The position numbers and the translations under genes were made by a program. From Sipunculus nudus (lineage: Eukaryota > Annelida > Sipuncula > Golfingiida > Sipunculidae), in contig CM049310.1 of the NCBI GenBank assembly GCA_026874595.1, positions 5,270,001 to 5,334,000 on the forward strand: a DNA stretch of 64,000 nt. The letters run 5' to 3'. Positions within the stretch are counted from its first letter, which is position 1, and each line of letters starts with the position of its first letter. Below, one piece after another: positions 22,526 to 62,555 of the stretch. The notes under the pieces were generated by a model. The model was not told the origin of the DNA and searched no databases. It saw only the letters and a program-made list of their open reading frames with translations.

Positions 22526-22801
22526 ATGGCCAGCAGGTTGTGTCGGCATTTCCTGCGATATTACAGTCGGAACGTAAAAAGAAACCCACCTGCAGGGGAG
22601 GCAGGTGACTCATGGCAACCACTCAAAAATGAATTTGACATCAAACAGTGGTTTCAAAACCCCGAGCAAATCCGAAAGGTTCCAAGAGAAACAGATGTGC
22701 TGATTATTGGTGGCGGTGCCATTGGGTCTTCAGTCGCATACTGGTTGAAGCAGCGGCACCCAGAAGGGTTCTCATGTGTTGTGGTTGAAAAGGACCCATG
22801 T
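22526..22801 (+). CDS. FOXRED1: FOXRED1 coding exon 1
   Basis: 92 codons: presequence, then [19 protein letters not shown] (Rossmann FAD site) and VVVEKDPC. Donor TGT|GTATGT, phase 0. It is the first ATG of the open frame and gives the N-terminus expected of the family. Confidence 0.95.
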
Positions 22802-25800
22802 GTATGTATTTGATGTATACACTAAGTCTAATACAAGTTAAATAACAAAATCACTTTATTTCTAACATAAATATTGCACCAGTACATTTTTTTACCCAAA
22901 GTTGGCCCAATTTTTAATTGCTTTATTTGTTGCTTAAATATTGTGGTACATTTTATATTATGGTAAATGTTCATAAAACTTGGCACCAGTTATTTACTAC
23001 CCTATTTTTATCATAGCCTTTGTATGGTATTTTCATAAGCATGTGAATTCACAAATTATTAAGTGCTCTATTTGTACTATAAATATTGTTATGGTTTAAT
23101 TTTTACATAAGATGTGCCCTAAAAGTTGGCACAGTTTAAAATATAATTCATTTGTGCCTTAAATATACTAGTGTGTTCTTTCCAAAATGGATTTCAGATC
23201 TTATCAAACTTCACACACAAAACAGTTTTACCGGGTTCTTTACACCTGAATCAGAAATACTGGTTAACACAGGAAAACAGTGAAAATGGGGTTTTATTGG
23301 CTGGTATGTGACTTGTTATGTTATTTACAGTATACCAGAGCATCCACGGTCCTGTCAGTGGGTGGTATCCGACAACAGTTCTCACTGCAGGAGAACATAG
23401 AGATGTCACTGTTCTCTGCTAAATTTCTAAGAGAAATTAAAGAACACCTCAGTGTGTTAGGTGAGTTATTTTTCAGTCACAAATGTAAATTTTGAAGACA
23501 TTGTGTTATTAATATTCATATAAGGTTCAATTATTCATGTTTCTGTTAACTAACTGTTCAGACTTAACAGATTTAAAGATAGACTTTGTAGATGTCAGTA
23601 CATATGTAATTATTTAATGGGCAGGCATGTGAAGATTTTGCAGATGTGAAGAGTTTGCTGACATAACTATAGACTTTTCAAACACAAGTATATAATTTGT
23701 AGATATAAATACAGAGCTTTCAAATAAACATAAATGTAGACTTTACAGAAATAGACTTTTCAGATATATTTGTACACTTTGGAGATATCAGTGTAGACTT
23801 TGTAGGGACAAGTTTTGACTTGGCAGATGTGTAGGATATGCAAGCATGATTGTAAGCTCTGTAGACATAAGCACAGAATGAGCAGACATATGCGGACTTG
23901 GTAGACAAGTTTAGATTTTGTAGAAATAAGTGTAGACTTTGCTTGCACAATATTGACTTTCAAGACAAGACTTTGCAAACAAAAGTGTATATTCTGAACT
24001 TTGCAGACATGACTTCTGACTTTGCAGGATTTGCTTTTTTTTCTGTTTGAGACATGTAAACATTGTCACTGATGTTCCTCCAGATTTAAACTGGCATGGT
24101 TTAAAAAATTTAGAGGAAAACCTTAACTTGGGTTACCAGTATGTAGTTTTTAGCCAGTACCAGTAGGAAAATAGGACACCTTGAACCAACACTTCTGTAA
24201 AATTCATAAAATCCTGTCGTGCTGTATATCCATACCTAGTAGAGATAAGAGCTGACTTTGCAGGCATAATGGTAGGCTTTGGAAATGTAAGTGTTGACTT
24301 TGCAGCCTTAATCATTGACTATGCATAGTTTTTGCCATCAATGTTCATTGATAACAAATGTGGTAGTATATAAGACTACTATTTGAATACTTAACATATA
24401 TTTTACATATGTGCAATTGACTTCCACTGATTCATGTAAAAGCAGTTAAGCATATGCTTTAGTATATAGAGTGTCATTAAAAAATTGATATACTTATAGA
24501 GTCCCTTTAGGAGTCCTTTTATTTAGTAGTTATGTTATTTTCCAGGACTTGACCCTCCTGATGTGCAGTTTAACCCACAGGGGTACTTGTTCTTGGCAAC
24601 AGAAAAAGGAGCAGAGACCCTCAAGACTAATTACGACTTACAAAGGTCAGGATCATGAATATTCATCAGGAAACAGTTGAATCAGAAGATGATCCTTCTT
24701 TATATAAGTTGTTGTAGTTTTGAATATCCTAAATGCACTTTTTAAATTAAAACTCCATTGTTCCACTGATAGCAAATGTTCTTAACTTAATTACTGATCA
24801 GAGGAAAGTTCACAATTCTTTTAAGACAAAATGTTTTTTTGCTATTATTATCTGAAAAAGTTGTTAGATTTCAAAATTAAATTGATCATTTCATCTTTAT
24901 TATGATGTGATAAATGGTTCTTTTTTATGCAGCAAGCTAGGTGCCAAAGTGGACTTAATGAATCAGACACAACTCAAGGAAAAATTTCCATGGTTGAAAA
25001 CAGATGATATAGAGTTAGGAACATACGGTAAGCCATGACAATGATGACATATGTCAATTTTGTTGAATGAAAAACATCTGGCTTTTACTTGCCCTACAAA
25101 AATCAATGATTTTAAGAAGGAACACAGAGTATGTTGCACATGATTGTGTAGTAAATCAGTTGTAATTTCATGATCTGTCATCAGTAAACATGGGTTGACC
25201 TCTACTGACCATTCATTGCAAATAATCAGTTGTTTAGGAGTATGAATGTTTTACAGAGCCCTGTATACTGGCTTAAGTGATATACACACCTACATGTTTA
25301 CTTGTATATGTAATAATTCTATAGCTGGTATGGGAGTGTAGTGATTTTGGTATGAAGTTATTAGTAAACACAGACTTTTAGAGAGTTAGCTTGCATGAAA
25401 AAAATAAAAATGAAAGCATACATTTCTTCATAAGAAAACCTATGTTATGTGCAAAACTTAGTAATCAATTATGGCACTGCAAGATCAGATTGTTTTACAC
25501 AAACTGATTGGTCAAAGATTATAATTAATCATTGGTCCATGACTAGTTATCTAGTGCATCATTAGGTATTTTCTTTATTCATCTGCTGGCTCCATCATTT
25601 CTTTGTTCACATTTATGATTGCAGGTTTGGAGAATGAAGGCTGGTTTGATCCATGGGCTCTCTTACAAGCCTTCAAGCTTAAAGCAATATCCCTGGGCAC
25701 AAAGTACGTGGCAGGGGAATGTGTAGGCTTCACACATGAAGAGAAAATGAGAGGCACTGCACACGGTGACCCCACTGTAATCAGACATAAGACATGTAAT

Positions 25801-28800
25801 GTAGCACAGGTAAGTCTGGAGACGCTGTACTTCTTTTATAACTGGGAAGTACTCAGGTAGGTGAACATGAGTTTAGCTGTCTGGTGAAGGTGGGAGCATT
25901 TAAAGCATTCTGGGTAAATCTGCAAGCAAAAAACAATGGCATATTAACATTAGTACTGTAGTTCATGTTCAGGTAAGGGATTGAACATCTTGGTTTGATG
26001 GGACCAGGCTGGGTAGTCTGATATAAATATGTTCATGTACATTATCCATGAGAGAATCTGGTCTAAACCCCATATCAGGCATGTATGTATTTTCACAATG
26101 TAAACCAATTTTCTGAAATGTAAATCATTCATGATATATATATCCAAAATAGTATCACTTTCCATGCATGTGTAAATTTATAATGGATGGTTCCTAGAGA
26201 ATTTGTTTTTAGCTTTTATTCAATCATTATGTTAGATAAACTGCTAAAAAAGTAAATAAATACCAGTAATGCTAAATGAAAGCAACACTCATAATACAAT
26301 TAATGCTGAATTTATATTTTTGTCTAATGAGAATTGGAGAATGCAAACATCTCTCTTTCATTAGAATCATTGTAATTTGTAAAGCATTTGGTAACAACTA
26401 GTGGTGGAGTTGGTACATATGTCATTATCAATCATCAGATTGGTCAAACCAATCGGTAATCATTTAACAATCAGTTCAAGTGTATATTCCATTACTTGTA
26501 TGTGTAAAACTGGAAAATTGTTGGAGTCTATAAATGCTATACTGTATATAATTTTTATTTAAATTTTGCCAAAAACTGCTAATTCTTGAGCTCATTCTCC
26601 AGATTATTGCTCAGAGTTTTCAACAGAATGTTATAAAAATTCTTAGATTGTAGAGCTTTTTTAAGCCAGTTGAGTCACTTAACAGGATGTTCTGTTTTTT
26701 GGCCTTTTTTGTCATTGGTCAATTGAGCACTTAAAACTGAAAGAAGAATGGCTGATTTCCAATAAAACATGATGACCATTCCATCACTAGTTAAACCACT
26801 TGAATGACAGGTTGATGTATAAACATTTGGTGTATGGTGTACAGACATATCCTCTGTGTTTCAGATCAGGACACCTGACGATGAGCTTCATGAGATTAAG
26901 TTTTGTTACTGCATCAACAGTGCTGGTCCCTGGGCTGGAGAGGTGGCTAACATGGCTGGTATTGGTAGTCATGAAGGGATTAATATGGTGCCCCTGCCTG
27001 TCCAACCAAGGTAATATATTAATTAGTCCATACTCCATAATGCACATACCAGTATTCTTGCTAGACAAGTATCCCAGTCCAAGTGCTCAGGCCCTCATTA
27101 CCTCAGTCAAAGGTTATATGTTTTCACTTATATTTGCTTGTCTAATAACAGATCATTGTGAATTAGTCATCATTGAGGGCAGATGTGTTTTCTTTGACAT
27201 TCAACCCTGGGAGGCCATTATAGGATAACTTGTTGATAGTAATCAGACAACAGTGATGATCATATAATCAGCACTGTTGTATTGCCTCATGAAGACTACC
27301 TTGCCAGATGTAGGCTTTGAAGCAACATTCAGTACAAGGCAAAGATCTAACAGTGAAACCTGTGTATTAAGACCTCCCATGGGAATGGCCAAAAGTTGTC
27401 TAATTAAAAGGTGGTCTTTTTAGACAGGTCAGTAAAAATCAATGTGAATGTTTGGTTCACTGAAGGGTGGTTTTATTAGACAGGTGGTCTTTCAGAAAGG
27501 TTTCACTGTAAATATACCTGAGAGACTCAAGGCACTACAGAGTTTAGTCACTCTTACTAATTTACCACTACTTTCAGAGACCCAAGAAAAAGATGAGACA
27601 AGTCAAGCCACAGGAGTTTCCCATCGTCATCAAACCCCAAATTTGGTCAATTAGATCAAAACTTATGACAGGAGTACTCTAAAGCTGATAAACCAATTTC
27701 CCCTTAACTTAGTGTAGGGGTTTGGACATGGGCTAAAAAAAGCTACATTAAATTTTGGTGCAGATCCATGGCATAGCCGGCAGGATTGATTTGCCTTGGT
27801 TGAGCTATGATTGAAATGCTAGGTTAAGGGGGCCTATATGGATATCTGACATCAGTTATTTAAGGGTAATCCCATGAACCTTGTATAAAAATATGCCAAG
27901 TAAGGCTGATCTTACCACACACAGGCTGCTCTTCTTATAAGGAATTACCTGTAGAATGTAAATGTCACTCGGAGGCTGATTTAAGAACCTTCCAGAAACA
28001 CTAAATTCATCTGACCTATTTCAGCAATCGAGGATTAGTTTTTACATAAGTCACTTGGTGGGGATTTCTTGTTTGTGTTCCAGGAAGCGTTTTGTGTACA
28101 TGTTCCACTGTCCAGATGGGCCAGGCCTGGAATGTCCCATGATCATAGACCCGAGCGGGACATACGTACGCCGGGAAGGGCTCGGGGGTAATTATATCTG
28201 TGGCGCTTCTCCTGAAGAGGTGAGATATTTATCTGTGTTTTATAGTTATTTGTAATACTTATTATGACAACTGGAACTCTTCTTTTCTAAAATCAAAACA
28301 TTCATTTACATGTATTGTTGTCATAATGTGGATTTTGCAACAATAGATATGTTTCCATTTATCTAGCCTATTATGTTTATATCAAGTAAATTGCTTTATA
28401 GAATCTTTAACTCAGCTGACTTTCAGTCATGCTAAGCTATAGTGATTGGTCTTTGTCTTTCTATCTTCCATCTGATTGTACATCCCTGAATCTGGCCAGT
28501 CATTAACAGGGCACAAACTGTAACAGTTTGACCTGGAACCTTGTCACTTAATATCCAAGGAGGACCTGGGAAAATCTTTAAAACCTGAAACTAGGTCACA
28601 GTGAAGAATATTCTTCAAGCTTCACATTGAAAACATACTTTATAGCATGGTGAAAGTCAGACTCTTCTAAGTGTTTGAATATTTGCATATTTTTCCCTAA
28701 AACATGGTACACAAATTGTTTTAAACAGTTCCAAACAGTTTCAAAACTTGTCTACAAAGTCATATCTTCAGAAATAGGGTTTCAGGTGAACACCTTAACT

Positions 28801-31800
28801 TTTGAAGTATTTGCAGATTAATTCCCTTCAAATTTAATACACAAAATTGTTTCAACCAATATAACTAGTGACTTTGACCTTGATCTTAAAGATCACATTG
28901 GCAGAAATAGAGGCTTGTTAACCTTTGGGATACTGCAAATTTTTTACTCCCATTTCATGTAAAAATTGTTTCAGTAAAGTTCTCAGTGTCGTAAAACTTG
29001 TGACCTTGACATTGATCTTCAAGGTCAGATCAGTGGAAATAAGGTGTATTTGTTTCCTCGTTTTTAGCTCAGCTGACTATAAGTCATCTGAGCTATAGTA
29101 GTGGTCCATTGTCCTTCGACTGTCTGTCCGGATGTTCGTCCGTAAGACTGGTACGTTTCGACACCATTGGACCTACGAATCTGAAATTCGGCATACAGTT
29201 AGATGTCCCCAGTATCTCCTAACATGCTGAAAATTGGGTCAATAGGATTTCCTTCCTTCGAGATATTAAGGAAAAATCTCAGTTTTTTATTAGAAATCTA
29301 TTTTAACACTTCAGGACTGCCTAATATCAAAACCACTCATCTGGTTTTTTAGCTCAGCTGACTGAAAGTCATCTGAGCTATAGCGATCACTCTTTGTCCA
29401 TCGTCCGTCTGTCTGTCTGTCCGTCCGTTAACCAGGCACAAATCGTAACCGCTTCTGAGAGGTCCATGAAAAATCTCCTTGGAAACCAGAAATTAGGTCT
29501 CTGTTACCCATATCCTTCGAGCCATGGGGCCCCAAAGTATCCCCCAGGAAAGTAAAAAATTTCATACAAAAACTTCAATATCTCATTAACTACTTGACTG
29601 ATGGTCATGTTTTTTGGCATACATATTGATCATGAGATGTTCCATCAGTTCCTGCAGACTGGTGGCGCCACCTTTATTTTTCAATTTTTACAAATTTTTT
29701 TCTCTATTTTTGAGACCTTTAAAAATATGAACATCTGTTTACAAGGCACAAATTGTAAAGACTGGACCTAGAATCTTAAATCTTGACACACTGAGAGGTC
29801 CATGAAAAATCTCCTTGGAAACTAGAAATTAGGTCTCTGTTACCCATATCCTTTGAGCTATGGGGCCCCAAAGTACCCCCCCCCCCCCCCCAGAATAGTC
29901 AAAAATTTCATACAAAAACTTCAATATCTCAATAACTACATCACTGATGGTCATGATTTTTGGCATACATATTGATCATGAGATGTTCCATCAGTTCCTG
30001 CAGACTGGTGGCACCACCTGTATTGTTTGATTTTTTACGATTTTTTCCTCTATTTTTGAGACCTTTAAGGATGCTGTCATCTGTTAACATGGCACAAATC
30101 ATAACGACTGGACCTAGAATCTTAAATCTTGACACACTGAGAGACCTTTGAAAAGTCTCCATGGAAACCAGAAATTAGGTCTCTGTTACCCATATCCTTC
30201 CAGCTATGGGGCCCCAAGGTACCCCCCAGAATAGTCAAAAATTTCATACAAAAACATTAATATCTCATTAACTACTTGACTGATGGTCATGATTTTTGGC
30301 ATACATTTTGATCATGAGATGTTCCATCAGTTCCTGCAGACTGGTGGTGCCACCATATTTTTCAATTTTTTTCTAATTTTTTTCTCTATTTTTGAGACCT
30401 TTAAAATGTGAACATCTGAATTGGCACAAATCGTAAAGACTGGACCTAGAATCTTAATTCTTGACACACTGAGAGGCTCATGAAAAATCTCCTTGGAAAC
30501 CAGAAATTAGGTCTCTGTTACCCATATCCTTCGAGCTATGGGGCCCCAAAGTACCCCTCAGAATAGTCAAAAATTTCATACAAAAACTTCAATATCTCAT
30601 TAACTACATCACTGATGGTCATGATTTTTGGCATACGTATTGATCATGAGATGTTTCATCAGTTCCTGCAGACTGGTGGCGCCACCTGTATTTTTTTCAA
30701 TTTTTACGAATTGTTTTCTCTATTTTTGAGACCTTTAAAATGTGAACAGCTGTTAACAGGGCACAAATCATAAAGACTGGACCTAGAATCTTCATTCTTG
30801 ACACACTGAGAGGTCCATGAAAAGTCTCCATGGAAACCTGAAATAAGGTCTCTGTTACCCATATCCTTTGAGCTGTGGGGGGGCTCCCAATTACCCCCCA
30901 GAATAATGGAAAATTTGATACAAAAGCTGCAGTATCTGAACAACTAATGCAGAGATCACCATAATTGTTTGCATGGATATTGATCATGGAGTGTCTCATC
31001 AGTTTCTGCAGACTGGTAGCACCACCTGTATTTGTTCGGGTTTTTTTACGAATTTTTTTCTCTATTTTTGAGACCTTTAAGGATGCTGTCATCTGTTAAC
31101 GTGGCACAAATTGTAGAAACTGGACCTAGAATCTTCATTCTTGTCATGCAAGGAGGCCCATGAAAAGTGCCTGTGGAAACCAGAAATTAGGTCTCTGTTA
31201 CCAATATCCTTCAAGCTATAGGACTCCGAAGTATCCCTCAGAATAATGGACAATTTGATACAAAAGCTGAAGTATCTGAACAACTAATGTGGAGATCACC
31301 ATGAATCTTGCATGGATATTGGTCATGGAATGTTTCATCAGTTTAGTGTTTTTTATTAGTTTCTGCAGACTGGTGAAGCCACCTGTATTTCTTATCTGCC
31401 AAAATGAAGTTTTGCGGATATTATGTTTTTGACCGTGTTCCTCCGCCGCCGCCATGTTCGTTTTCATAGAACTTCTCTGAGACTAATGGACCAATTTTTC
31501 CGAAACTTACACCAATTATCGGGTCACATGTGAACTGGTGCCTAACCAATTAGCGTTGACCCCTGACCTTTCCTCTCTGCCCAGCGTCCTTTTGTGCGTC
31601 TGTTTCCACACATAAATCCTCATATCTTGGGAACTATTTGACCGATCAGGAAATAAATTTTATACAAATGTAGCCCTTGGATAGCTTTATAACATACACA
31701 AAAAATGGTGGCGCCACCTGTAACCATGTTTGCACAGTGTCCATCTGTTCATCTGCCTTGGGTTAAAATCACTCATATCTCTGCAGTGAATTGACTAATT

Positions 31801-34800
31801 CACCTGAAATTCGGCATGCGTATACATCCTGGATAGCTTTCTTGATTTTATGACAGGTGGCACCACCTACAATCACTTTCACGCTGATGACAACCAAGCT
31901 AATATCACGGGAGCCATTTGACCGATCGGGCCAAAATTGTGCATGTGTATAGATCTCACATAGCTCTTTATCATACACAAAACTGGAGGGGCCACCTGCA
32001 ACCATTTTTGCACAGCGTCTGTCTGTTTGTCTGCCATGGGATAATGTCACTCATATCTCGGCAGTGGTTTGACATATCTGCTTAAAATTTTGCAGTTTTA
32101 TACATCCTGGATAGCTTTCTTGATTTTATGTCAGGTGGCGCCACCTACATTCACGTTCGCATTGATGACATCCAAGCTCATATCTCGGGAAACGTTTGAC
32201 CGATTTGGCCAAAATTTGCATGTGTATAGATCTCACATAGGTCTTTATCATACGCAAAACTGGTGGCACCACCTGCAACCATTTTTGCACAGCGTCCGTC
32301 TGTGTGTCTGCCTTGGGTTAAAATCACTCATATCTCTGCAGTGAATTGACTAATTCACCTGAAATTCTGCATGCATATACATCCTGGATAGTTTTCTTGA
32401 TTTTATGACAGGTGGAGCCACCTACATTCACATTTACGCTGCAGACATCCAAGCTCATATCTCGGGAACCGTTTGAATGATTGGGCCCAAATTTTTTTTC
32501 ATGTGTATAGATCTCACATAGGTCTTTATCATACACAAAACTGGAGGGGCCACCTGCAACCATTTTTGCACATTTTGCACAGCGTCTGTCTGTTTGTCTG
32601 CAGTGGCCTAAAATCACTCATTTCTCTGTAGTGGTTTGACATAACTGCCTAAAATTTTGCAGGTTTATACATCCTGAACAGCTTTCTTGATTTTATGACA
32701 GGTGGCGCCACCTACATTCTAGTTAATGCTGCACACATCCAAGCTCATTTCCCAGGAACCCTTTGACTGATTGGGCCAAAATTGTGCATGTGTTTAGATT
32801 TCACATAGGTCTTTATCATACACAGAACTGAAGGGGCCACCTGCTACCATTTTTGCACAGCATCTGTCTGTTTGTCTGCCATGGGATAATGTCACTCATA
32901 TCTCGGCAGTGGTTTGACGTATCTGCCTAAAATTTTGCAGCTTTATACATCCTGGATAGCTTTCTTGATTTTATGACAGGTGGAGCCACCTAAATTCTAG
33001 TTAACGCTGCACACATCCAAGCTCATATCTCAGGAACCATTTGACCGATTGGGCCAAAATTGTGCATGTGTTTAGATCTCACATAGGTCTTTATCATACA
33101 CAAAACTGGAGGGGCCACCTGCAACCATTTTTGCACAGCGTCCGTCTGTTTGTCTGCCGTGGGCTAAAATCACTCATATACATGTAGTGGTTTGACTTTT
33201 CTGCCTAAAATTTCACATATGTATACAACTTGGACAGCTTTCTGGATTTGTGGTAGGTGGCACAACCTACATACACATTTAGGCTGCAGACATTCATGCT
33301 AATATGCAACATACCTGACTATTTCCCCATGCCACTCAATCCATGCCTCACTTCACCCGCTCCACTCTGATTTTGGCAGATACACGTAGTCACTTGTCGG
33401 CTACCCATATTCTAGTTTTTAAAGTTTACACATTTTTTCTCTATTTTTGAGATATATAAATACAGACTTAATCTTGGCCTGTTGGTTAATCTGTTTGATG
33501 CTTCAGTTGAATGAGTATATACTACCATTATGATAATAAAATTTCCTTTTGTGAATCTCTTCCCAGTCAGCTGAGTGTCATGACCCATGGGTCACTTGTT
33601 TCATATTTACCATAAATATTCCTCTATATAGTTCCTATGTACATGCCAGAAATTAAGTCAGTATTATTTAATTTTAAAAAGTTATGGGCCCAAACATAAT
33701 GGACTTTGTAAAAAAATCAGGAAAGATATTTGGTCACTTAAGACCAAAGTGTTAAAGGTAGGGACTTTTTTTCAGTAATACTACTTTAATTAATCAAAAT
33801 TTAATTGTATACCAAAAATTAGATCAAAATCTGTTAAATTTTTTTAAATATTGGCAAAAATATAAAATTGGTACCTTAAATTTTGCCCAACTTTGGCCAA
33901 GGCACGTTTTTTTTGGTAAGTACTGTGGATTTAATTTTCACAGCCTGTACACATAAGGATTTAATCTGTTAAAATCTGAAATTTGAAAATAAAAGCTGCA
34001 AAATCAGGCTAGTTATTGAATTTTTTTTGCAGGCTCTGGTTGTATTCCCTTACTTTGTCAAGCAGTCCACTTTAGTGACTGTAGGTCATTCAGTGCAGCT
34101 CTCTATGCTCCCAAGGCTGTTGGCATAATGTTATGCAATCCCATCACTAAGGCAAGTCCTCTCTCCACTGAGATGAGCTTGATCAGGCTGTCTGCAGTTA
34201 ATACCATACCACAGGGAGCCTTTTTCTCTGGCACCCCCCCCCCCCACCCCACCCACCCTCCACCCCATTCTGTTGACAGACCTGTACTATGAACTAGATG
34301 AATTTTAAAATTAACATTTTTTTCAACAAGAGCAGTGACAACGGAGACCCCCCCACCCACCCCTTCAATAAACAGGACTAATAAACAAGATCTTATTATT
34401 TTAATGTTAAATAAATTCTTTTTGATGAGACTTGCACAATTTCTTGCACCATTCCTATGATTACCAAGTATGTCTCCACCAAATATTGTCATTCCTATGT
34501 TTACCAAGTATTACTCCACCAAATATTGTCATTCCTATGATTACCAAGTATGTCTCCACCAAATATTGTCATTCCTATGATTACCAAGTATGTCTCCACC
34601 AAATATTGTCATTCCTATGATTACCAAGTATGTCTCCACCAAATTTTGTCATATCAATGAATACAAAGTATGTCTCCACCAAATATTGTCATTCCTATGT
34701 TTACAAAGTATTACTCCACCAAATATTGTCATTCCTATGATTACCAAGTATGTCTCCACCAAATATTGTCATTCCTATGATTACCAAGTATGTCTCCACC

Positions 34801-37800
34801 AAATATTATCATTCCTATGATTGCCAAGTATGTCTCCACCAAATATTGTCATTCCTATGATTACCAAGTATGTCTCCACCAAATATTGTCATTCCTATGA
34901 TTACCAAGTATGTCTCCACCAAATATTGTCATTCCTATGATTACCAAGTATGTCTCCACCAAATATTGCCATTCCTATGATTACCAAGTATGTCTCCACC
35001 AAATATTGTCATTCCTATGATTACCAAGTATGTCTCCACCAAATATTGCCATTCCTATGATTACCAAGTATTTCTCCACCAAATATTGTCATTCCTATGA
35101 TTACCAAGTATGTCTCCACCAAATATTGCCATTCCTATGATTACCAAGTATTTCTCCACCAAATATTGCCATTCCTATGATTACCAAGTATGTCTCCACC
35201 AAATATTGCCATTCCTATGATAACCAAGTATGTCTCCACCAAATATTAAGTGATATATGTTGAAAACAAATGAAATAAAAATTCTTTGGGAGTGTTCCAT
35301 CTGTGCTTCCAATTTTTTAATGCCATCAAGGGATGAATTGTTTTTTCTGTAAAACATGGACCTCCCTGAAATGCCTGCCTATGGGGAAAAACACCTCGCT
35401 AGAACTATCTTAAATATAAGTTGTTGAGCTGTACGAGGTGTGTCTGAGCCTGCTTGCTTGGTTTGGACCTGGCTAGGCTTATGCTTGATGTGTGTATAAG
35501 CTACTTTGTGGCTGGGTTTTCTTACAATCCTCACAAAGTAACTTGAATTAAATTTCCAGCATTGATCTTAAATTTCCTGTGATGACACTGATTTTCATTT
35601 TGTATGGAATTTCAAATTTTAAGAAAACTCATGGTGTGTGGGCAAACTGAAGATTTGTAGAGAAGTTGTTTGCAAACTTAAAAATGAATTACAAAATATT
35701 TGGAAATTTTGTAAATTGTTGAAAAACTTATGAATTGTAGGATGAAGAACCAGATAGTACCAATCTGGATGTAGACTACGATTTCTTTAATGACAAAATC
35801 TGGCCAGTTCTGGCAAATCGAGTGCCTGCCTTTGAAACATTAAAGGTTGGTAACCATGGAGATCACGAGGCCTTAGTAACTCTTATGATTGATTGGCAAC
35901 CCTGTATGCATGCCCTAGTGAATACTATTGTCTCAAAATCAGATGGAAGTATGGTACAGCAGCCTGGCTGCAGCCGTGATTGGCTCATGATGATTGCTCC
36001 CCTTGGCACTTGAATAACAACATCTGGAGAGTCATGAATATTCATGCCTGTATACCTCGGTGAATTTGGGAAAATTACCAGTTGCACATTTTCATGATGC
36101 ATTTAAAGAAAATTAAGGTGAAGGTTTTCAAGAATCGATGGTGTTTGTATAAATTTAGGAATCTCCGCTGTGCCTTCCCTTAAATGTCCACCTTTTTGTC
36201 AGAGGTTGCTTCTACCAAGCCTTTTCCTGATTGGGGTGGCTGGAACTGCTCACCTCACCTGCCAAAATTAAAAATAAAAATTTGTCACATTCTAAGAAAA
36301 TACTTTATTAACATTGCAGATGGGCATGGCCACCAATTGTTACCAATTTCATCCAATTCTTATCACACACATTCATTCATGTAATTAATCTGGTATTATT
36401 CTAACATATATTAATTGACTACCCATTCTCTTCCTCACATGTTTACCTGAACCTTTTTTGTTTGTTGATACCGTTATGAATTGTGAGGGAATGTTCCTTT
36501 GTGAACAATCTCTAAGGTAGCAGCAGAGTTGTAATGTTTGTGAGTGCAGTTCTGAGCTGAGTATGATTCTGAAGCTGCTGTCTTTCCAACTGATTTTGAG
36601 AGTGCTATTAAGATGGCATGATGTCATCATCATCATCAAACTCACTTGATTCTTTTTGTATAGTTTAACCCAGATTGTACTTGCTCTGTCTAGTGACCAT
36701 AGTGTAGTGATGGTTTAAAGGTGTGATGTTTTCCTCAAACCCCATAGACTGGTGCTCTGTGTGATTCATGGTTACCAAGCTTCACTCTACTTTGGTTCCA
36801 ACTGTGACCACATGGTACATGTGGAGTAAAACTTACAGTTGGAACTGTGTTCATGCATGGCCTGTAATGATCCATGGGCAGGGCGGGATAGTTGGGTTCA
36901 GCAAGACAATATTTACCGGACTCCATTGCATCTGACTGGACCACATGATTAAATAAATAGTTCATGGTAATATGATTGAAAACAGTAATGTGTTAGTAAT
37001 GTATTACATGGATTTGTACATTGTTAACTATTTTGTAATGTTTGAATTCATAAAGGGTCACTCACATGGGGATTACTTAGATGATGCGACCATCTTTATT
37101 GTGCAGCAAATAAAATATTTGTGTAATTCCTGAAAAAAGTTTGATCTGAATCAGAACCTATAAAATTACTGTATTGCCAGCCAAGGGTGCTGGCTCTAAA
37201 CTAAATTTGCCATACCTCCCTCAAAACTACATGCAAAGTCTTGTAGTCTGACGCTAATTTTGATCCCTTCCTGGGTTTGTAATAAATTTTGAATTACAGT
37301 ATTATTGATATTTTTGGATGTCCTTATATCAGTATATTGACAGTAGTTGATCATCAAATAGAAAACAATGTCTTATATTTAAATGGAAGTCTTTTGGCAC
37401 TGTAAGACATGCAAGAAATGTCATTGGTCAGAAATAAGTGAAAATGACCTCTGATTGGTTAATCACAACATATTTACATCAATAGAAGGGGCTATTCTAG
37501 ATGCATAATTAAAATGTCCACTATGGCAATCATTAAACATTCTTGTCTTAATTAAATGGATTGGAAATAAATTTTATTAGTGGGAGTTTTTAGAGGTTTC
37601 TAGAGAACTGCAGAAAATTTGTTTGAAAAATTTAATTTTAATAGCAATTTTAATATTTTTTATGTATAAAACATGTTGCGTATGGTACTGCCAGGAAAGT
37701 ATTGAGATACCTAGTGAGATAATGTGTCATTACAGGCCTTGTTCTTTCTGTGCCTCCCGTCTTTTTTCACTATCATTTTGTTTTTGCTGCAAGTCAAATC

Positions 37801-39548
37801 AGATGTACAAAGAGCTGCCAGAGACTGTTTGGTTTTCATTGTCATCATGTATTGTGCCTCTTTCACATTCTTCATCCTTTCTGAGTGATGGCTCAAACAT
37901 TTGTTCCTGCACCAGTTACATATAAAATATTACTATAAAGAGAACCAAAAATGTTTAACACCATTTTGTGAATTTGAAAAGACACCAGGTATACAATAAT
38001 ATCATGTGTGAAAATTTATTTAATAAAAAACAGCAGGAAACGCAAAATATGTTGACTATTTATATTCAGTTCCATAAAATTTTTCTTTGAATTGGCACTT
38101 CAGGGAAAACTAAATCATTCTCACCTTGTTTAATGGGTATGGAAAATTACACCTCATTAAATTGATGAAGTAGTGGCTAATAAAAAATCAAATGAGCAGC
38201 CATCCTCAGTATTAGATGTTCGTGGTATATTTCTGTGTTGCACATGTATTATGAGTGGTGTGTCTCATAACCAAGCAGTCAGTCATAATAGAGTGGCATG
38301 TCACATGACCAACCAGCAGCCTGTTTGATGAACTGTATCAGCTTCAGCATGCTTTTGATTTGCATAAGTGGAATGTTTGAGGATTTGTAGCTACTAACAA
38401 CTGTGTCACATGACCACAAAACTTCCAATCAGATCTGGCATCTGCCAGAACACATCCAATCAGATGCTTTGGTCAGGGAGGTTTTCCTGATGTTGAACTG
38501 TTGATGTTTGCACCTTTAGGATGAAGTTGATCACAGTCATGTAGGAGTGGAGGTAGATTATTTTCACAAGAAACTATTACCTGAGTTAACCCATAGGATA
38601 CCTGTCTTCCAAAATCTACAGGTAAGTATGTGATAAGAGGTGATACCTTACTCAACTGGAGCATCTTGCAGGTATCATTAAATGTGGTAAGAATGAATAC
38701 AGAAGCATAGCATTTGTGTGGTATGTGTTTTATTTCCTTTATTTTTTGCAAAAAACCTTTCACACAGAAAATATAATAGTGATGCAAGCTTTTTACTTTT
38801 TGCACTGTCTGTATGATATTTTTATACAATCATAAATTAATTTTTAAAATATGTTTAAAACCAGGTTATGTATGTAAATTTATTGATGTGTGTTGCGTAG
38901 TTCAGCAAAACTTGCATTAATTTGTAGTTATATGTTTATGGCTTAGTGGGCTGCCATTCCTAATATATTCAAGCCTGTAATGTGATTTATTATTGTATAT
39001 ACTAGTTCATTTTGATATGTGCAGCTATTTAAACTGTCTTCATATGTCAGTAGATCTGTTACACTGAAATGTATTAAATTATTTTTAAATTTCTGTTTGA
39101 TAATATGTTATGATGGTTACATGTCTTTGTAAGATGTTGAACTTAAAACACATTTAATGATGATACATCATTAAAAATTCTGTGGTAATATTATCTAATC
39201 TTATAAAAAAATATTAACATATCATAGTGATTTGTCCATATATAACCAGTGGATGAATCTTACCAAGTTTAAAAGGTGATTTTGTCTTTTCAGTTGAGAA
39301 GTGCCTGGGCCGGCTTTTATGACTACAACTACATCGACCAAAACCTGATTATTGGCAATCATCCATACTACCGTAATATGTTTTTCACGAATGGCTCAAG
39401 TGGTCATGGAATACAACATTCACCAGCTATTGGTCGTGCAATAATGGAACTCATTATAGATGATGAATTTCAGACTGTGAATCTTTCTCGACTCAGCTTT
39501 GACCGTTTTCTCGCAGAGGAACCAGTTTTTGAATCTAACATCGTCTGA
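22526..39548 (+). CDS. FOXRED1: FOXRED1, mitochondrial FAD-dependent oxidoreductase / complex I assembly factor
   Basis: Family role: FOXRED1 is a mitochondrial FAD-dependent DAO-fold protein needed for assembly of respiratory complex I. Nine exons join in frame to 475 codons plus stop (the human protein is about 486 aa): 22526-22801, 23331-23460, 24546-24645, 24933-25027, 25625-25809, 26865-27010, 28084-28219, 35741-35845, 39294-39548. Residues 1-20 are Arg-rich and lack acidic residues, fitting a mitochondrial presequence. The FAD-binding GGGAIG is at residues 62-67. Diagnostic stretches include [55 protein letters not shown] and [17 protein letters not shown] second version of exon 8 lies at 38520-38621. 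Intron 7 is 7.5 kb and filled with repeats. Confidence 0.96.
23331..23460 (+). CDS. FOXRED1: FOXRED1 coding exon 2
   Basis: [20 protein letters not shown] and on to HLSVL. Acceptor ttatttacag, donor AG|GTGAGT, ends phase 1. Confidence 0.95.
23560..24320 (+). repeat. Degenerate short tandem repeat in FOXRED1 intron 2
   Basis: Variants of 'agactttgcagacataagtg' recur at roughly 20-30-bp spacing through 23575-24020 and again at 24240-24310. The units are too diverged to give a clean consensus, so the array is old. There is no coding meaning. Confidence 0.6.
24546..24645 (+). CDS. FOXRED1: FOXRED1 coding exon 3
   Basis: [20 protein letters not shown] onwards. Acceptor tattttccag, donor AAAG|GTCAGG, ends phase 2. 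Confidence 0.95.
24933..25027 (+). CDS. FOXRED1: FOXRED1 coding exon 4
   Basis: [21 protein letters not shown] and on to GTY. Acceptor tttatgcag, donor CG|GTAAGC, ends phase 1. Confidence 0.94.
25625..25809 (+). CDS. FOXRED1: FOXRED1 coding exon 5
   Basis: [20 protein letters not shown] and on to CNVAQ. Acceptor tgattgcag, donor ACAG|GTAAGT, phase 0. The EGWFDPW motif is strongly conserved in FOXRED1. Confidence 0.95.
26865..27010 (+). CDS. FOXRED1: FOXRED1 coding exon 6
   Basis: [20 protein letters not shown] then [12 protein letters not shown]. Acceptor tgtgtttcag, donor AAG|GTAATA, ends phase 2. The NSAGPW segment is the usual DAO-fold FAD-contact region. Confidence 0.95.
27353..27513 (+). 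repeat. Interspersed repeat copy, plus orientation
   Basis: Contains 'tctaattaaaaggtggtctt', 'ggttcactgaagggtggt' and 'gacaggtggtctttcag'. The inverse copy is at 41092-41245, with the same blocks in reverse order. A short non-coding transposon-like element in FOXRED1 intron 6. Confidence 0.65.
28084..28219 (+). CDS. FOXRED1: FOXRED1 coding exon 7
   Basis: [20 protein letters not shown] and [16 protein letters not shown]. Acceptor gtgttccag, donor GAG|GTGAGA, ends phase 0. Confidence 0.95.
28400..29344 (-). repeat. Decayed Helentron-like end fragments with D-type units
   Basis: Two partial element starts (28407 'aactcagctgactttcagtc' and 29066 'tttttagctcagctgactat') with intervening 'tgaccttgatcttaaagatc'-like D-family units. 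Both are older and more diverged than E3, which follows at once. Confidence 0.55.
29345..33598 (-). mobile_element. Composite Helentron-like element E3 in FOXRED1 intron 7
   Basis: The left edge is TTTTTTAGCTCAGCTGACTG and a GTCC/GTCT tract. Six B monomers have palindrome boxes near 29665, 30007, 30344, 30676, 31014 and 31373. A nested family A element follows (31395-33415), then the common end with GTCATGACCCATGGGTCAC and TTG next to T. The order and the A/B junctions are the same as in E1 and E2. At 4.25 kb it is the largest of the four. Confidence 0.72.
31395..33415 (+). mobile_element. Nested Helitron-like element (family A) inside E3
   Basis: Starts A|TCTGCCAAAATGAAG and ends CCCATATTCTAG|T. 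A short stem (GTAGTC/GGCTAC) lies about 11 bases before the CTAG. The body is a tandem array of ~280-bp units, each with two palindrome boxes (31857, 32134, 32411, 32700, 32979, 33256 and the intermediate ones). These are Helitron-type termini without any Rep/helicase coding. Confidence 0.72.
34451..35247 (+). repeat. 40-bp minisatellite, about 20 units
   Basis: Unit 'attcctatgattaccaagta' plus 'tgtctccaccaaatattgtc', repeated about 20 times with few substitutions (gtc/gcc; tgtctcc/tttctcc/ttactcc). It lies in FOXRED1 intron 7 about 500 bp before exon 8a. The homogeneity suggests recent expansion. Confidence 0.95.
35741..35845 (+). CDS. FOXRED1: FOXRED1 coding exon 8a (canonical version)
   Basis: 35 codons, [20 protein letters not shown] then [15 protein letters not shown]. 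It is the closer match to vertebrate FOXRED1 (DFFQDKVWP..., RVPAFETLK). Acceptor gaattgtag, donor AAG|GTTGGT. Both ends are phase 0, so it can be swapped or skipped without shifting the frame. Confidence 0.93.
38520..38621 (+). CDS. FOXRED1: FOXRED1 exon 8b, duplicated alternative exon
   Basis: 34 codons between acceptor tgcacctttag and donor ACAG|GTAAGT, open throughout and phase 0 at both ends. It encodes [20 protein letters not shown] then [14 protein letters not shown]. It lines up along its whole length with exon 8a (same DE start, D-[FY]-F, K, P, L, R-[VI]-P-x-F, L end), about 13 identities in 34 by eye. The likely reading is a mutually exclusive cassette encoding residues 357-391 of the DAO domain. 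A dead exon copy is unlikely because frame and both splice sites are intact. Confidence 0.85.
39294..39548 (+). CDS. FOXRED1: FOXRED1 last coding exon
   Basis: 84 codons plus [43 protein letters not shown], ending ESNIV. The GHGIQ segment is the C-terminal FAD-contact region of the fold. Acceptor tcttttcag. Either exon 8a or 8b splices here in phase 0. Confidence 0.96.
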   Translation: MRSAWAGFYDYNYIDQNLIIGNHPYYRNMFFTNGSSGHGIQHSPAIGRAIMELIIDDEFQTVNLSRLSFDRFLAEEPVFESNIV

Positions 39549-41683: not shown

Positions 41684-43105
41684 GAACAGAACAGAACTTT
41701 ATTCAGGAAAAATGGCCACAGGGCCTACAGTTCCCAACATGATTGACATAATTCAAGTTCTTATTTAACAACTGAATGAAAATGATCTGAATACAGTCAG
41801 TTAAATGAACAAACTTAATATAAACACAGAGAACTAAATAAAGCATAATTGACTGAATCTTGCTAAAGATTCTCATAAACATCTGTACTGACTTAATACA
41901 AAATTAAACATTTAATGTAACAAATTGAATAGACAGTGAAAGCAAACAAAATGACAATTATTATTTGCTGACAATAACATATGCATATATTTTCTTTAAA
42001 TAAACTGTGCGCACATGTAAGTTCTATACATGTTATCTGCCTGAAAATATTTAACATTTACCAGTATATATAAAAAAAAATGAATATAATAGAAAATATG
42101 TAAATAAATAAACAAAGAGATGAACAGAAAAATATATAAACACTTAAATAATAGCTAGAGATATCTTACCTCTGCATGTATCCTTCAAGGAAATATAAAA
42201 CAAGTTTTATTACAGTTCGGTGAACCGTTACAGTATAAAAACTATATAATACAGTATTCATATATTCAGCAGAATTCTTGTATTTAAAGTGCAGACTTTT
42301 AAACATTAAACAGAGATAATTTGGCTCTATAATATATGTAATTGGAATATTATTATATGAGTATTTATTTAATTACTGACTTTATAATAAAGGAAGTTTG
42401 GCCATCTTTGACCAGCTTGTCAAAATTAAGGTATACTGATTTGCTATCTTCCCTGGCCTTTAGCATACGTAGTATTAAGTTACTTCTAACTTTCCTCACT
42501 GCTTCACTATAATTGTTTACCACTCTTTCTGATTCCTTTAAATGCTCCCTAGCCTTTTCCATTACAATTTCTTTCTCTTTGTGCCGAGTAAACTTTACAA
42601 TAACAGGCCTAGGTTTACCCCTCCTATTTTTAACAGGTAGCCTGTGTGCTCTATCTATGCCTAGTTTATCGTCTGTATCACAGTCAATTTTCAGCTTTTC
42701 TTTCACAACTTTTCTGATTTTCTCCTCGCAGTCTTTCCAAGTTTCCTTCCCCTTGCTCTCTGGAATTCCATGAAAAATCACGTTCTGCCTTCTGGATTGG
42801 CCCTCAAGCTGATTACATTTTCTACGAAGGTCTTTGTTTTCTTGTTCCAGTTCCATCACTCTCTTAACAACATTCTGCAGCCTGGACTCCAGGGTTTTGA
42901 TATGTCCAGCAAGTTCTGACAGTTGCTGTTGCCCATTTGACAGACCTGTTGGGTGTATACCAATAGGGTCTCCCTCACTGACAGTGGCTGTCATTTGGGA
43001 TGGGTATGTGGCTGACTACCCTGACTGCTACTGACCAGTGTCGAAGTAAAACTTGAGTGAGCAACAGTTGTCCCCTCTAGGGTAATGCTACCCTCTGCAT
43101 TTGCA
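41684..43105 (-). mobile_element. Short LINE carrying only ORF1, with 12-bp target site duplication
   Basis: TCTGTTTCCACA occurs at 41672-41683 and again at 43106-43117, and once in uninterrupted family A copies, so it is a true target duplication. On the minus strand the insert has a ~110-bp leader, one ORF (42365-42994), a ~680-bp AT-rich tail region, AATAAAG, and a (TTCTG)3 end. No reverse transcriptase or endonuclease coding is present in its 1.42 kb. Confidence 0.8.
42365..42994 (-). CDS. L1-type ORF1 protein (RNA-binding, coiled coil), intact
   Basis: 209 aa. Family role: LINE ORF1 proteins trimerise through a coiled coil and coat element RNA as a chaperone. Here residues about 25-68 are a heptad-like coiled coil (LESRLQNVVKRVMELEQENK). 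Residues about 70-150 hold the RRM-like part (RRQNVIFHGIPES, DRAHRLP, RPVIVKF). Residues about 165-205 match the ORF1 C-terminal domain (NNYSEAVRKVRSNLI, LKAREDSKSVYLNFDKL, KDGQ). There are no internal stops. The element has no ORF2, so its mobility would depend on enzymes from another LINE. Confidence 0.8.
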   Translation of the reverse strand: MTATVSEGDPIGIHPTGLSNGQQQLSELAGHIKTLESRLQNVVKRVMELEQENKDLRRKCNQLEGQSRRQNVIFHGIPESKGKETWKDCEEKIRKVVKEKLKIDCDTDDKLGIDRAHRLPVKNRRGKPRPVIVKFTRHKEKEIVMEKAREHLKESERVVNNYSEAVRKVRSNLILRMLKAREDSKSVYLNFDKLVKDGQTSFIIKSVIK

Positions 43106-50516: not shown

Positions 50517-53500
50517 CAAGTGACCCATGGGTCATGACGCTCAGCTGACTGGGAAGAGATTCGCAAAAGGAAATTTTATCATCAGAATGGTAGTATATAC
50601 CCATTCAACTGAAGCATCAAACAGATTAACCAACAGGCCAAGATTTAGTCTGTATTTATATATCTCAAAAATAGAGAAAAATGTGTAAACTTTTAAAACT
50701 AGAATACGGGTAACCGACAAGTGACTACATGTATCTGCCAAAATCGGATAGTGAGGCATGGATTGAGTGGCAAGGGGAAACAGAGTGAGGTATGTTGCAT
50801 ATTAGCATGGATGTCTGCAGCCTAAATGTGTATGTAGGTTGTGCCACCTACCACAAATCCAGAAAGCTGTCCAAGTTGTATACACCTGCAAAATTTTAGG
50901 CAGAAAAGTCAAACCACTACATGTATATGAGCGATTTTTGCCCATGGCAGACAAACAGACAAACACTGTGCAAAAATCTTTGCAGGTAACCCCTCCAGTT
51001 TTGTGTATGATAAAGACCTGTGTGAGATCTAAACACATGCACAATTTTGGCCCAATCGGTCAAATGGTTCCTGAGATATGAGCTTGGATGTGTCCAGCGT
51101 TAACTAGAATGTAGGTGGCGCCACCTGTCATAAAATCAAGAAAGCTGTCCACGATGTATAAACCTGCAAAATTTTAGGCAGTTATGTCGAACCACTACAG
51201 AGAAATGAGTAATTTTAGGCCACGGCAGACTAACAGACAGATGCTGTGCAAACATTGTTACAGGTGGCGCCACCATTTTTTTGTGTATGTTACAGAGCTA
51301 TCAAAGGGCTACATTTGTATAAAGTTTATTTCCTGATCGGTCAAACGGTTCCCGAGATATAAGCTTGGATGTCATCAGCGTGAACGTGAACGTAGGTGGC
51401 GCCACCTGTCTTAAATTAAGAAAGCTATCCTGGATGTATACACATGACGAATTTCAGGTGAATTAGTCAATTCACTGCAGAGATATGAGTGATTTTAACC
51501 CAAGGCAGATGAACAGATGGACACTGTGCAAACATGGTTACAGGTGGCGCCACCATTTTTTGTGTATGTTATAAAGCAATCTAAGGGCTACATTTGTATC
51601 AATTTTATTTCCTGATCGGTCAAACGGTTCCCGAGATATGAGGGTTTATGAGTGGAAACAGACCCACAAATGGACACTGGATAGAGAGGAAAGGTCAGAA
51701 TTCAATGCAAATTGGTTAGGCACCAGTTCACATGTGACCCGATAATAGGTGTAAGTTTGGGAAAAATCGGTCCATTAGTCTCCGAAGAGTTCTCTGGAAA
51801 CGAACGCCGCCGCGGCGGAGGAACTCGGTCAAAAACATAGTATCCGCAAAACTTCGTTTTGGCGGAAACAAAAATACAGGTGGCTCCACCAGTCTGCAGA
51901 AACTAATAAAAACACTTAATGGTCAATATCCATGCAAAAAATCATGGTGATCTCTGCATTAGTTGTTCAGATACTTCAGTTTTTGTATCAAATTGTCCAT
52001 TATTCTGAGGGATACTTCGGAGTCCTATAGCTTGAAGGATATGGGTAACAGAGACCTAATTTCAAGTTTCCACAGGCACCTTTCATGGGCCTCCTTGCAT
52101 GACAAGAATGAAGATTCTAGGTCCAGTTGTTGCGATTTGTACCCTGTTGACAGATAACCACATCTTTAAAGGTCTCAAAAAAAAAGAAAAAAATTCGTAA
52201 AAATTTGAAAAAAAAATAGAGGTGGCACACCCAGTCTGCAGAAACTGATGGAACAGCTCATGATCAATATGTATGCCGAAAATCATGACCATCAGTGTTG
52301 TAGTTATTGAAATACTGCAGTTTTTGTATCATATTTTCCATTATTCTGGGGGGGGGGGGGTATTTTGGACCCATACAGCTTAAAGAATATGGGTAACAGA
52401 GACCTAATTTCAAGTTTCCATGGAGACTTTTCATGGGTCTCCCTGTGTGTCAAGAATGAAGATTCTTGGTCCAGTTTTTATGATTTGTGCCCTGTTAACA
52501 GATGTTCATATCTTTAAAGGTCTCAAAAATACAGAAAAATTTTGTAAAAAAACCCGAACAAATACAGGTGGTGCCACCAGTCTGCAGAAACTTATGAAAC
52601 ACTCCATGATCAATATGCATGCAAACAATTATGGTTATCTCTGCATTAGTTGTTCAGATACTTTAGCTATTGTATCAAATTTTCCATTATTCTGCGCTGT
52701 ACTTTGGAGTGCCATAGCTCAAAGGATATAGGTAACAGAGACCAAATTTCAGGTTTCCATGGAGACTTATCATGGGTCTCCCTGTGTGTCAAGAACGAAG
52801 ATTCTAGGTCCAGTCGTTACGATTTGTACCCTGTTGACAGATAACTACATCCTTAGAGGTCTCAAAAATGGAGAAAACAATTCGTGAACATTGAAAAATA
52901 CAGGTGGCGCCACCAGTCTGCACAAACTGATGAAACATCTCATGATCAATATGTATGTCGAAAATCATGACCATCAGTGATGTAGTTAATGAGATATTGA
53001 AGTTTTTGTATGAAATTTTTGACTATTCTGGGGGGTAATTTTGGGCCCCATAGCTCGAAGGATATGGGTAACAGAGACCTAATTTCTGGTTTCCATGGAG
53101 ACTTTTCATAGGTCTCTCAGTGTGTCGAAAATGAAGATTCTAGGTCCAGTCGTTACGATTTGTGCCACGCTAACAGATGACAGCATCCTCAAAGGTCTCA
53201 AAAATAGAGGAAAAAATCGTAAAAAATCAAACAGTACAGGTGGCGCCACCAGTCTGCAGGAACTGATCGAACATCTCATGATCAATATGTATGCCAAAAA
53301 TGAAGACCATCAGTGATGTAGTTATTGAGATATTGAAGTTTTTGTATGAAATATTTTACTATTCTGGGGGGTACTTTGGGGCCCCATAGCTCAAAGGATA
53401 TGGGTAACAGAGACCTAATTTCTGGTTTCCAAGGAGATTTTTCATGGACCTCTCAGTGTGTCAAAAATTAAGATTCTAAGTCCAGTCTTTATGATTTGTG

Positions 53501-53930
53501 CCTTGTTAACAGATGTTCACATTTTTAAAGGTCTCAAAAATAGAGAAAAAAATTCGTAAAAAAATCGAAAAATACAGGTGGCACCACCAGTCTGCAGGAA
53601 GTGATGTAACATCTCATGATCAATATGTATGCCAAAAATCATGACCATCAGTCAAGTAGTTAATGAGATATTGAAGTTTTTGTATGAAATTTTTGACTTT
53701 TCTGGGGGGTACTTTGGGGCCACATAGCTCGAAGGATATGGGTAACAGAGACCTAATTTCTGGTTTCCAAGGAGATTTTTTATGGACCTCTCAGAATCCC
53801 AAGTTACAAGGTTCTAGGTCCAGCGGTTACGATTTGTGCCTGGTTAACGGACGGACAGACGGACAGACGGACGACGGACAAAGAGTGATCGCTATAGCTC
53901 AGATGACTTTTAGTCAGCTGAGCTAAAAAA
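50517..53930 (+). mobile_element. Composite Helentron-like element E2, near-identical to E1
   Basis: Same order as E1: CAAGTGACCCATGGGTCATG end, nested A (50699-51866), six B monomers (boxes near 51879, 52222, 52566, 52905, 53239 and 53577), GACGGACAG tract, and CAGTCAGCTGAGCTAAAAAA. It differs from E1 mainly by one extra ~280-bp A unit and a 75-bp segment after 50618 that E1 has lost. Elsewhere only scattered substitutions; some 190-bp stretches read identically. Confidence 0.75.
50699..51866 (-). mobile_element. Nested Helitron-like element (family A) inside E2
   Basis: On the minus strand the 3' end is CCCGTATTCTAG followed by TTTTAAAAG. The 5' hairpin (CAAAACGAAGTTTTG) abuts B sequence 'acaaaaatacaggtggc'. 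The junctions are identical to those of E1 and E3. Confidence 0.68.
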
Positions 53931-62360: not shown

Positions 62361-62555
62361 ATGTCGAAGTCGTTAAAAAGACACGCCTTTGGACTGAGGG
62401 TGGTTGTATCTGCGTGTATTCTGTTATTATGGATCCCTTATATTGATGGTCATGGCCGCTTGGTGGAGCCACCTTCCCGTTCCAGCATGTGGCGATTTGG
62501 GTTCTCAACTCCACACAATTACAACGACAACCAGCTCAACTGTGGAGGATTCAGT
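62361..62555 (+). CDS. AA15 LPMO paralogue (LPMO 2), first coding exon, gene truncated by window end
   Basis: 65 codons. Basic N-terminus and hydrophobic core (LRVVVSACILLLWIPYIDG) form a longer signal peptide than in LPMO 1. Cleavage before HGRLVEPPSRSSMWRFGFST would expose His31 as the N-terminal copper ligand. It continues NYNDNQLNCGGFS to donor AGT|GTGAGT, the same codon boundary and phase as LPMO 1 exon 1, so the two are tandem paralogues. No sequence like LPMO 1 exon 2 is present in the remaining 1.4 kb, so the rest lies beyond the window. Confidence 0.92.

What the first reader, a model, noticed from the sequence alone, without database searches (positions are those of the whole stretch)
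35741..38621. FOXRED1 has a duplicated, diverged exon 8 (8a/8b) that looks mutually exclusive
Seen directly: two segments 2.7 kb apart, each bounded by good splice sites, each phase 0 at both ends, each open, and alignable along their whole length (about 13 of 34 residues identical by eye). 8a is the canonical vertebrate-like version; 8b changes most surface-type residues but keeps the D-[FY]-F, P, R-[VI]-P-x-F and L anchors. Either can join the last exon in frame. Inference: the gene makes two isoforms differing in one ~35-residue block of the DAO domain. I know of no description of such an exon pair in FOXRED1.
Basis: partly seen in the sequence, partly recalled or inferred. Interest (0 to 1): 0.85.

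Follow-up and report, generated by a model that had tools for sequence, protein, structure and literature searches.

The report
Duplicated penultimate exon in FOXRED1
A gene that looks like FOXRED1, a helper enzyme for building mitochondrial complex I, carries two old, diverged versions of the same 35-residue exon, so it can probably make two forms of the protein, although no RNA data were available to show that the second form is made.

Summary
A FOXRED1-like gene (+ strand, 22526-39548) has exon 8a (35741-35845, 105 nt) and a diverged homologous copy, 8b (38520-38621, 102 nt). Both are phase 0 at each end and open, and either joins exons 7 and 9 in frame. They share 12 of 34 residues (13 with a gap); 0 of 20,000 shuffles reach their alignment score. 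A genome search found 8b only here. Synonymous sites are saturated (pS 0.93) while non-synonymous ones are not (pN 0.35). A family profile accepts 8b far better than shuffles or simulated neutral drift, so 8b was kept as coding sequence for a long time. Its donor scores highest of 635 GTs between exons 7 and 9; 8a's acceptor is the weakest in the gene. In a model of a bacterial homologue the block is a loop plus one helix before a long strand. Mutual exclusivity is not shown: including both exons or neither is also in frame, the 2.67-kb spacing gives no steric block, both introns are GT-AG, and no convincing RNA pairing was found. No other animal and no RNA data could be searched. Best reading: a tandem duplicated exon substitution, a known kind in a new gene.

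The parts
22526..22801 (+). FOXRED1-like exon 1 (start codon, presumed mitochondrial leader, GGGAIG motif typical of FAD binding; both roles recalled)
23331..23460 (+). exon 2
24546..24645 (+). exon 3
24933..25027 (+). exon 4
25625..25809 (+). exon 5
26865..27010 (+). exon 6
28084..28219 (+). exon 7
35741..35845 (+). exon 8a, canonical copy, residues 357-391 of the 475-aa isoform; weak acceptor
38520..38621 (+). exon 8b, diverged tandem copy, 34 residues; strong donor
39294..39548 (+). exon 9, last coding exon with stop codon
35907..35912 (+). TGCATG (RBFOX-type motif, recalled), 62 nt into the intron after 8a; lead only

Best explanation
8b is a functional alternative exon that arose by an old tandem duplication of exon 8. 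Exon 7 is spliced either to 8a or to 8b and then to exon 9, giving a 475-aa or a 474-aa FOXRED1. The two differ only in a loop plus one helix of the DAO fold that lead into a long strand (WAGFYDYN). Shown from the sequence: homology, matching phase, intact frame, a strong 8b donor, long-term coding constraint on 8b, and family-compatible sequence. Inferred: that 8b is spliced in, and that it replaces 8a. Inferred mechanism: 8a, with its weak acceptor, needs activation (possibly through TGCATG downstream), and 8b is the default or is repressed where 8a is used. The swap would retune a surface or partner contact while the other exons, among them exon 1 with the GGGAIG motif, stay the same.
For: Homology and in-frame architecture. 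One FOXRED1 locus found: 10 rows for the protein (query lacking exon 3), 8 of them exons of this gene; 8b found only here. pS 0.93 (19.5 of 21.0 sites) against pN 0.35 (28.5 of 81.0) over 34 codons. Codon-position differences 16/10/22 for first/second/third of 34. Neutral simulations from 8a to the same 48 nt differences: 0 of 20,000 reach the 8a-8b score and 4,295 of 20,000 stay stop-free; 0 of 20,000 reach 8b's score on a profile built only from 14 bacterial homologues. Family HMM from 33 bacterial and archaeal proteins: 8a 409.3 bits, 8b 397.3, neither 350.5, 200 shuffles mean 362.8 and maximum 377.0. Pfam DAO: 172.1, 169.4 and 148.9. 8b donor is first of 635 GTs.
Against: No transcript evidence. 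No second species. 8b loses W (14/14 bacterial), A (14/14), A (13/14) and P (13/14), and scores 21 on the bacterial profile against 75 for 8a. The identity alone is less striking than the score: 775 of 20,000 neutral runs keep 12 or more residues. Nothing enforces exclusivity in the sequence; 15 intron pairings gave z no lower than -2.4. With its strong donor 8b would tend to be included alongside 8a unless it is repressed. The HMM does not penalise double inclusion (417.1 bits). PMC9741552 (passages) says that mutually exclusive splicing of duplicated exons is uncommon though tandem duplication is common.
Confidence: 0.62

Rival explanations
1. 8b is an in-frame cassette exon spliced in addition to 8a, at least in part of the transcripts, giving a 509-aa protein with a duplicated loop-helix insertion.
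For: Both exons are multiples of 3 and the double form is open; the 8b donor is strong; the family HMM does not penalise the double form (417.1 bits against 409.3). PMC9741552 (passages) notes that mutually exclusive splicing of duplicated exons is not common and that not all tandem duplications are spliced that way.
Against: 8b keeps enough family residues to replace 8a at the same place in the fold, which an inserted extra copy would not obviously need.
Confidence: 0.17
2. 8b is a relic: it was a functional duplicate for a long time but is now little used or beginning to decay.
For: Loss of W, A, A and P at sites kept in 13 or 14 of 14 bacterial homologues; the canonical copy 8a scores much higher on the family profile.
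Against: Open frame, correct phase and a consensus donor still intact; coding constraint averaged over the whole divergence, though these tests cannot date a recent loss of constraint.
Confidence: 0.13
3. 8b became the default exon in this lineage and 8a, with its weak acceptor, is the rarely used one.
For: 8b donor rank 1 of 635 GTs against 22 for 8a; acceptor score 1.5 against -3.2.
Against: 8a protein is the conserved version (75 against 21 on the bacterial profile), so it is probably used somewhere; the scores use recalled, not species-specific, weights, and exons 1 and 6 have weaker donors than 8a.
Confidence: 0.05
4. The resemblance is chance, or an assembly artefact.
For: None found.
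Against: 0 of 20,000 shuffles; protein divergence far beyond allelic; the protein search finds this one locus.
Confidence: 0.02

Closest known systems
Tandem duplicated exon substitution events / homologous mutually exclusive exons (Martinez-Gomez et al. 2022, PMC9741552; passages and section 17 read)
   Same: Adjacent homologous exons, same phase, near-equal length, deep divergence; non-conservative changes tolerated (the paper's Cacophony example keeps 16 of 39 residues).
   Different: FOXRED1 was not met with this: the search for FOXRED1 with exon duplication listed one paper, on clinical RNA-seq, not opened. No RNA or proteomic proof here; taxon unnamed.
OGDH exons 4a/4b (PMC7969005; abstract and passages seen)
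   Same: Mitochondrial enzyme whose properties are switched by an ancient duplicated exon pair.
   Different: OGDH exclusion is enforced by distant branch points, with an intron of 118-131 nt in birds and mammals; here the intervening intron is 2,674 nt. No Ca2+ motif was sought in 8b.
FOXRED1, complex I assembly factor (PMC7887287 and PMC6723710; abstracts and passages seen)
   Same: FAD-dependent DAO protein of similar length (human 486 aa, 11 exons); 4 of 8 published human variant residues fall on identical residues at one offset.
   Different: Nine coding exons if one version of exon 8 is used, plus the second exon 8; at that offset the block corresponds to human residues about 368-402, where none of the eight variant residues tested lies.
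Archaeal L-proline dehydrogenase beta chain 1y56_B and the DMGDH/sarcosine oxidase family
   Same: Closest solved relative by sequence and by fold of a bacterial homologue.
   Different: About 26-29% identity; enzymatic role not transferable.

Membership tests
Tandem duplicated exon pair | Adjacent exons homologous at protein level | tested here: met
   0 of 20,000 shuffles reach score 75
Tandem duplicated exon pair | Same phase, near-equal length, intact splice sites and frame | tested here: met
   105 and 102 nt, phase 0/0, GT-AG, no stops
Tandem duplicated exon pair | Both copies retained by selection on coding sequence | tested here: met
   pS 0.93, pN 0.35; neutral simulations 0 of 20,000; recent loss of constraint not excluded
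Mutually exclusive exons | Each transcript carries one copy only | not testable with these tools
   no RNA data
Mutually exclusive exons | Enforcement by frame, steric limit or U2/U12 incompatibility | tested here: not met
   double form in frame; 2,674-nt intron; GT-AG at both
Mutually exclusive exons | Enforcement by competing RNA structure | tested here: inconclusive
   15 pairings of 300-nt flanks, lowest z -2.4 with 40 shuffles each
FOXRED1 | DAO domain over most of the protein | tested here: met
   Pfam DAO 172.1 bits over residues 57-444 of 475, cut-off 27.9
FOXRED1 | Orthology to animal FOXRED1 | tested here: inconclusive
   published human residues Q118, G307, R352 and N430 match at a single offset, 4 of 8; human sequence itself only recalled
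FOXRED1 | Complex I assembly function | not testable with these tools
   from the literature on human FOXRED1 only

The most novel reading that the evidence does not exclude
A regulated, ancient exon switch in FOXRED1 gives an animal two complex I assembly factors, or two oxidoreductases. The 8b block, with four histidines where 8a has none, changes partner binding or adds pH or metal sensitivity, much as OGDH 4b adds Ca2+ sensitivity, so that complex I biogenesis is tuned by tissue or by hypoxia.
Probability: 0.1. Interest if true: 0.75.

Novelty: new member of a known kind. Interest (0 to 1): 0.48.

Why it matters
If 8b is used, complex I assembly can be varied by splicing, and the exon pair marks which part of FOXRED1 can be retuned without loss of the fold. 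That is useful because the reaction and partners of FOXRED1 are not settled (recalled). The synonymous saturation predicts that the pair is old and so should be present in related species, which makes the claim easy to test.

Tried and rejected
A third copy of exon 8, or duplicates of other exons, between 22000 and 41000: none that I accept. Two weak look-alikes, of exon 5 at 25067 (score 47) and of exon 6 at 36830 (score 44), came out of 10 exons x 855 fragments and were dropped. Taken alone the exon 5 one beat all 5,000 of its own shuffles (maximum 36), and the exon 6 one was reached by 3 of 5,000. By a hand estimate with recalled statistics (no call) a score of 47 is expected about twice over all these comparisons, but I did not test this further.

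Copies elsewhere in the genome: the protein search, with a query that lacked exon 3, lists 10 rows. Eight are exons of this gene; the others are a 26% match on C113 (E 0.001) and a weak one on C3. In one search (8b plus exon 9) the rows outside the gene have E 0.86 and 1.63. The tool scores only the best candidates and some stretches read N, so this does not prove absence.

RNA pairing between introns: nothing convincing (shuffles of 2-mer blocks only).

Taxon: the hemocyanin family search was uninformative. The COX1 search returned mainly near-identical copies on contigs C60-C89, which I did not use.

8a/8b substitution rates: the Biopython LWL85 and YN00 methods failed on saturation, so counts come from a hand-written NG86.

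Duplicate DNA in the flanks: none of the 10 direct-repeat families of 40 nt or more listed for 28220-39293 links the surroundings of 8a and 8b.

Rows dropped: of 80 loci I took 34 into; L038 fell out because its frame broke, leaving 33. The 'close bacterial' set is L001-L014 (14), chosen by rank; L026 (41%) was not taken. Alignment A2 holds 28 of the 33.

I moved it to the rival and lowered the best explanation from 0.66 to 0.62 and raised that rival from 0.14 to 0.17.

Full report
WHAT IS THERE. The window holds one gene on the + strand whose spliced product is a 475-residue FAD-dependent oxidoreductase (Pfam DAO, 172.1 bits, cut-off 27.9). I rebuilt nine exons: 22526-22801, 23331-23460, 24546-24645, 24933-25027, 25625-25809, 26865-27010, 28084-28219, 35741-35845 (8a) and 39294-39548 with the stop, plus the extra segment 38520-38621 (8b). 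The name FOXRED1 rests mainly on recall of the human protein. One check from print supports it: of eight human variant residues given in the passages of PMC7887287, four (Q118, G307, R352, N430) meet the same residue at a single offset of 11; the other four do not. That the genome is an animal's is inferred, not tested.

THE PAIR. 8a and 8b begin and end in phase 0, are open, and align over their whole length: 12 of 34 identical without gaps, 13 of 34 with one. The score of 75 was reached by 0 of 20,000 shuffles, maximum 43. Among 1,515 open AG...GT segments of 25-45 codons on both strands of the window, nothing but forms of 8a itself and 8b exceeded 30. In the 1.43-Gb assembly the protein search (query lacking exon 3) lists ten rows. 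Eight are exons of this gene, one is a 26% match on contig C113, and one is weak. A search with 8b plus exon 9 finds 8b only here. The tool scores only its best candidates, so this is not proof of absence. The simplest reading is a tandem copy inside one gene, not a stray piece of a second gene.

HAS 8b BEEN SELECTED AS PROTEIN? Three tests say yes, averaged over its history. (i) Synonymous sites are saturated (pS 0.93, 21 sites) while non-synonymous ones are not (pN 0.35, 81 sites) over 34 codons; second codon positions differ least (16/10/22 for first/second/third). (ii) Neutral evolution simulated from 8a to the same 48 differences reached the observed protein score in 0 of 20,000 runs; 4,295 of 20,000 stayed free of stops, and 775 kept 12 or more identical residues. 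(iii) Using only bacterial homologues as the yardstick, 8b scores 21.1; neutral runs average -33.0 with a maximum of 15.8, 0 of 20,000 reaching 8b. In a full-length HMM of 33 bacterial and archaeal proteins the protein scores 409.3 with 8a, 397.3 with 8b, 350.5 with neither, and 362.8 on average with 200 shuffled 8b blocks, maximum 377.0. Pfam's DAO model agrees (172.1, 169.4, 148.9). These tests cannot exclude a recent loss of function.

WHAT COUNTS AGAINST. 8b is the derived copy: 8a scores 74.9 on the bacterial profile. 8b has lost a tryptophan (14 of 14 bacterial homologues), an alanine (14 of 14), another alanine (13 of 14) and a proline (13 of 14). No transcript and no second animal could be searched with the tools at hand.

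SPLICING. By a simple score with recalled weights, 8b's donor CAG|gtaagt ranks first of 635 GTs between exons 7 and 9, and 8a's AAG|gttggt 22nd; the acceptors rank 68 and 253 of 493 AGs. 8a's acceptor is the weakest of the nine in the gene. Its donor is low but not unusual here: exons 1 and 6 score lower. Exclusion is not built in: the double form (509 aa) and the empty form (440 aa) are open and in frame, the intron between the copies is 2,674 nt, and both introns are GT-AG. Fifteen pairings of 300-nt intron flanks gave z values no lower than -2.4, not convincing for 15 tests. One TGCATG lies 62 nt past 8a, where 0.10 is expected per 200 nt; RBFOX as its reader is recalled and the motif is a lead only.

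WHERE IN THE PROTEIN. A model of a bacterial homologue (L002, 28-sequence alignment, mean pLDDT 93.2) shows the block mainly as a loop, one helix and a short helical turn, ending about two residues into a long strand. Its closest solved fold is archaeal L-proline dehydrogenase 1y56_B, TM 0.87, which is also the closest by sequence to the 8a isoform. The isoforms themselves were not folded. 8b carries four histidines where 8a has none, and a net charge of -3 against -6. What this does is unknown; my inference is a changed surface contact.

COMPARISON WITH WHAT IS KNOWN. [quoted passage not shown] PMC9741552 counts 236 in 214 human genes (passages and section 17 seen). The same passages say that mutually exclusive splicing of duplicated exons is uncommon, which counts for the cassette rival. 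A mitochondrial precedent is OGDH 4a/4b, where exclusion is enforced by distant branch points and a short intron (PMC7969005, passages seen). Searches for FOXRED1 with mutually exclusive exons (3 papers, two opened), mollusc (0), exon duplication (1, listing only), oyster (0), and alternative exon or isoforms (10 of 3,440 listed), and the listing for FOXRED1 alone (25 of 259 papers shown), showed no description of this pair. The two opened papers give a human FOXRED1 exon-skip event in thyroid cancer, a different event type. Subscription papers and supplements were not searched.

VERDICT. A real, old, selectively kept duplicated exon; probably an alternative exon; mutual exclusivity plausible but unproven. 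A new member of a known kind, in a gene where it would be interesting.

Noticed in passing
window 28220-35740 (intron 7): Intron 7 holds three tandem arrays: 346 bp x 5.3 (29455-31265), 278 bp x 5.8 (31693-33305) and 40 bp x 20 (34450-35247); no array was reported between 8a and exon 9.
   Followed up: partly
window 4130-6135 and 51870-53880: Two arrays with a 336-bp unit, each 5.8 copies and followed by the same GACGGACA run, lie about 47.7 kb apart and look like copies of one another.
   Followed up: no
G000 contigs C60-C90: Several near-identically scoring DAO-family (529 aa) and COX1-family (577-578 aa) open frames without stops sit on these contigs; they look bacterial and suggest a symbiont or contaminant present as several assembled strains.
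   Followed up: no
G000:C5:67852325-67852477: A 51-residue COX1 piece with one TGA on the same contig as the window, possibly nuclear mitochondrial DNA.
   Followed up: no
window 42365-43015 (-): 216-aa open frame with a weak L1 ORF1-like match (Transposase_22, 20.3 bits, below its cut-off of 22.4) among other weak coiled-coil-type matches.
   Followed up: partly
window 62355-62738 (+): 127-aa open frame with a signal-like start and HGRLVEPPSRSSMWR, which resembles the start of an AA15-type lytic polysaccharide monooxygenase (recalled); Pfam gave no match.
   Followed up: partly
L001-L014: Bacterial homologues (Gemmatimonadota, alphaproteobacteria and others) are 41-46% identical in the best segment to this protein, 13 of 14 of them matched through to residue 474 or 475 of it.
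   Followed up: partly
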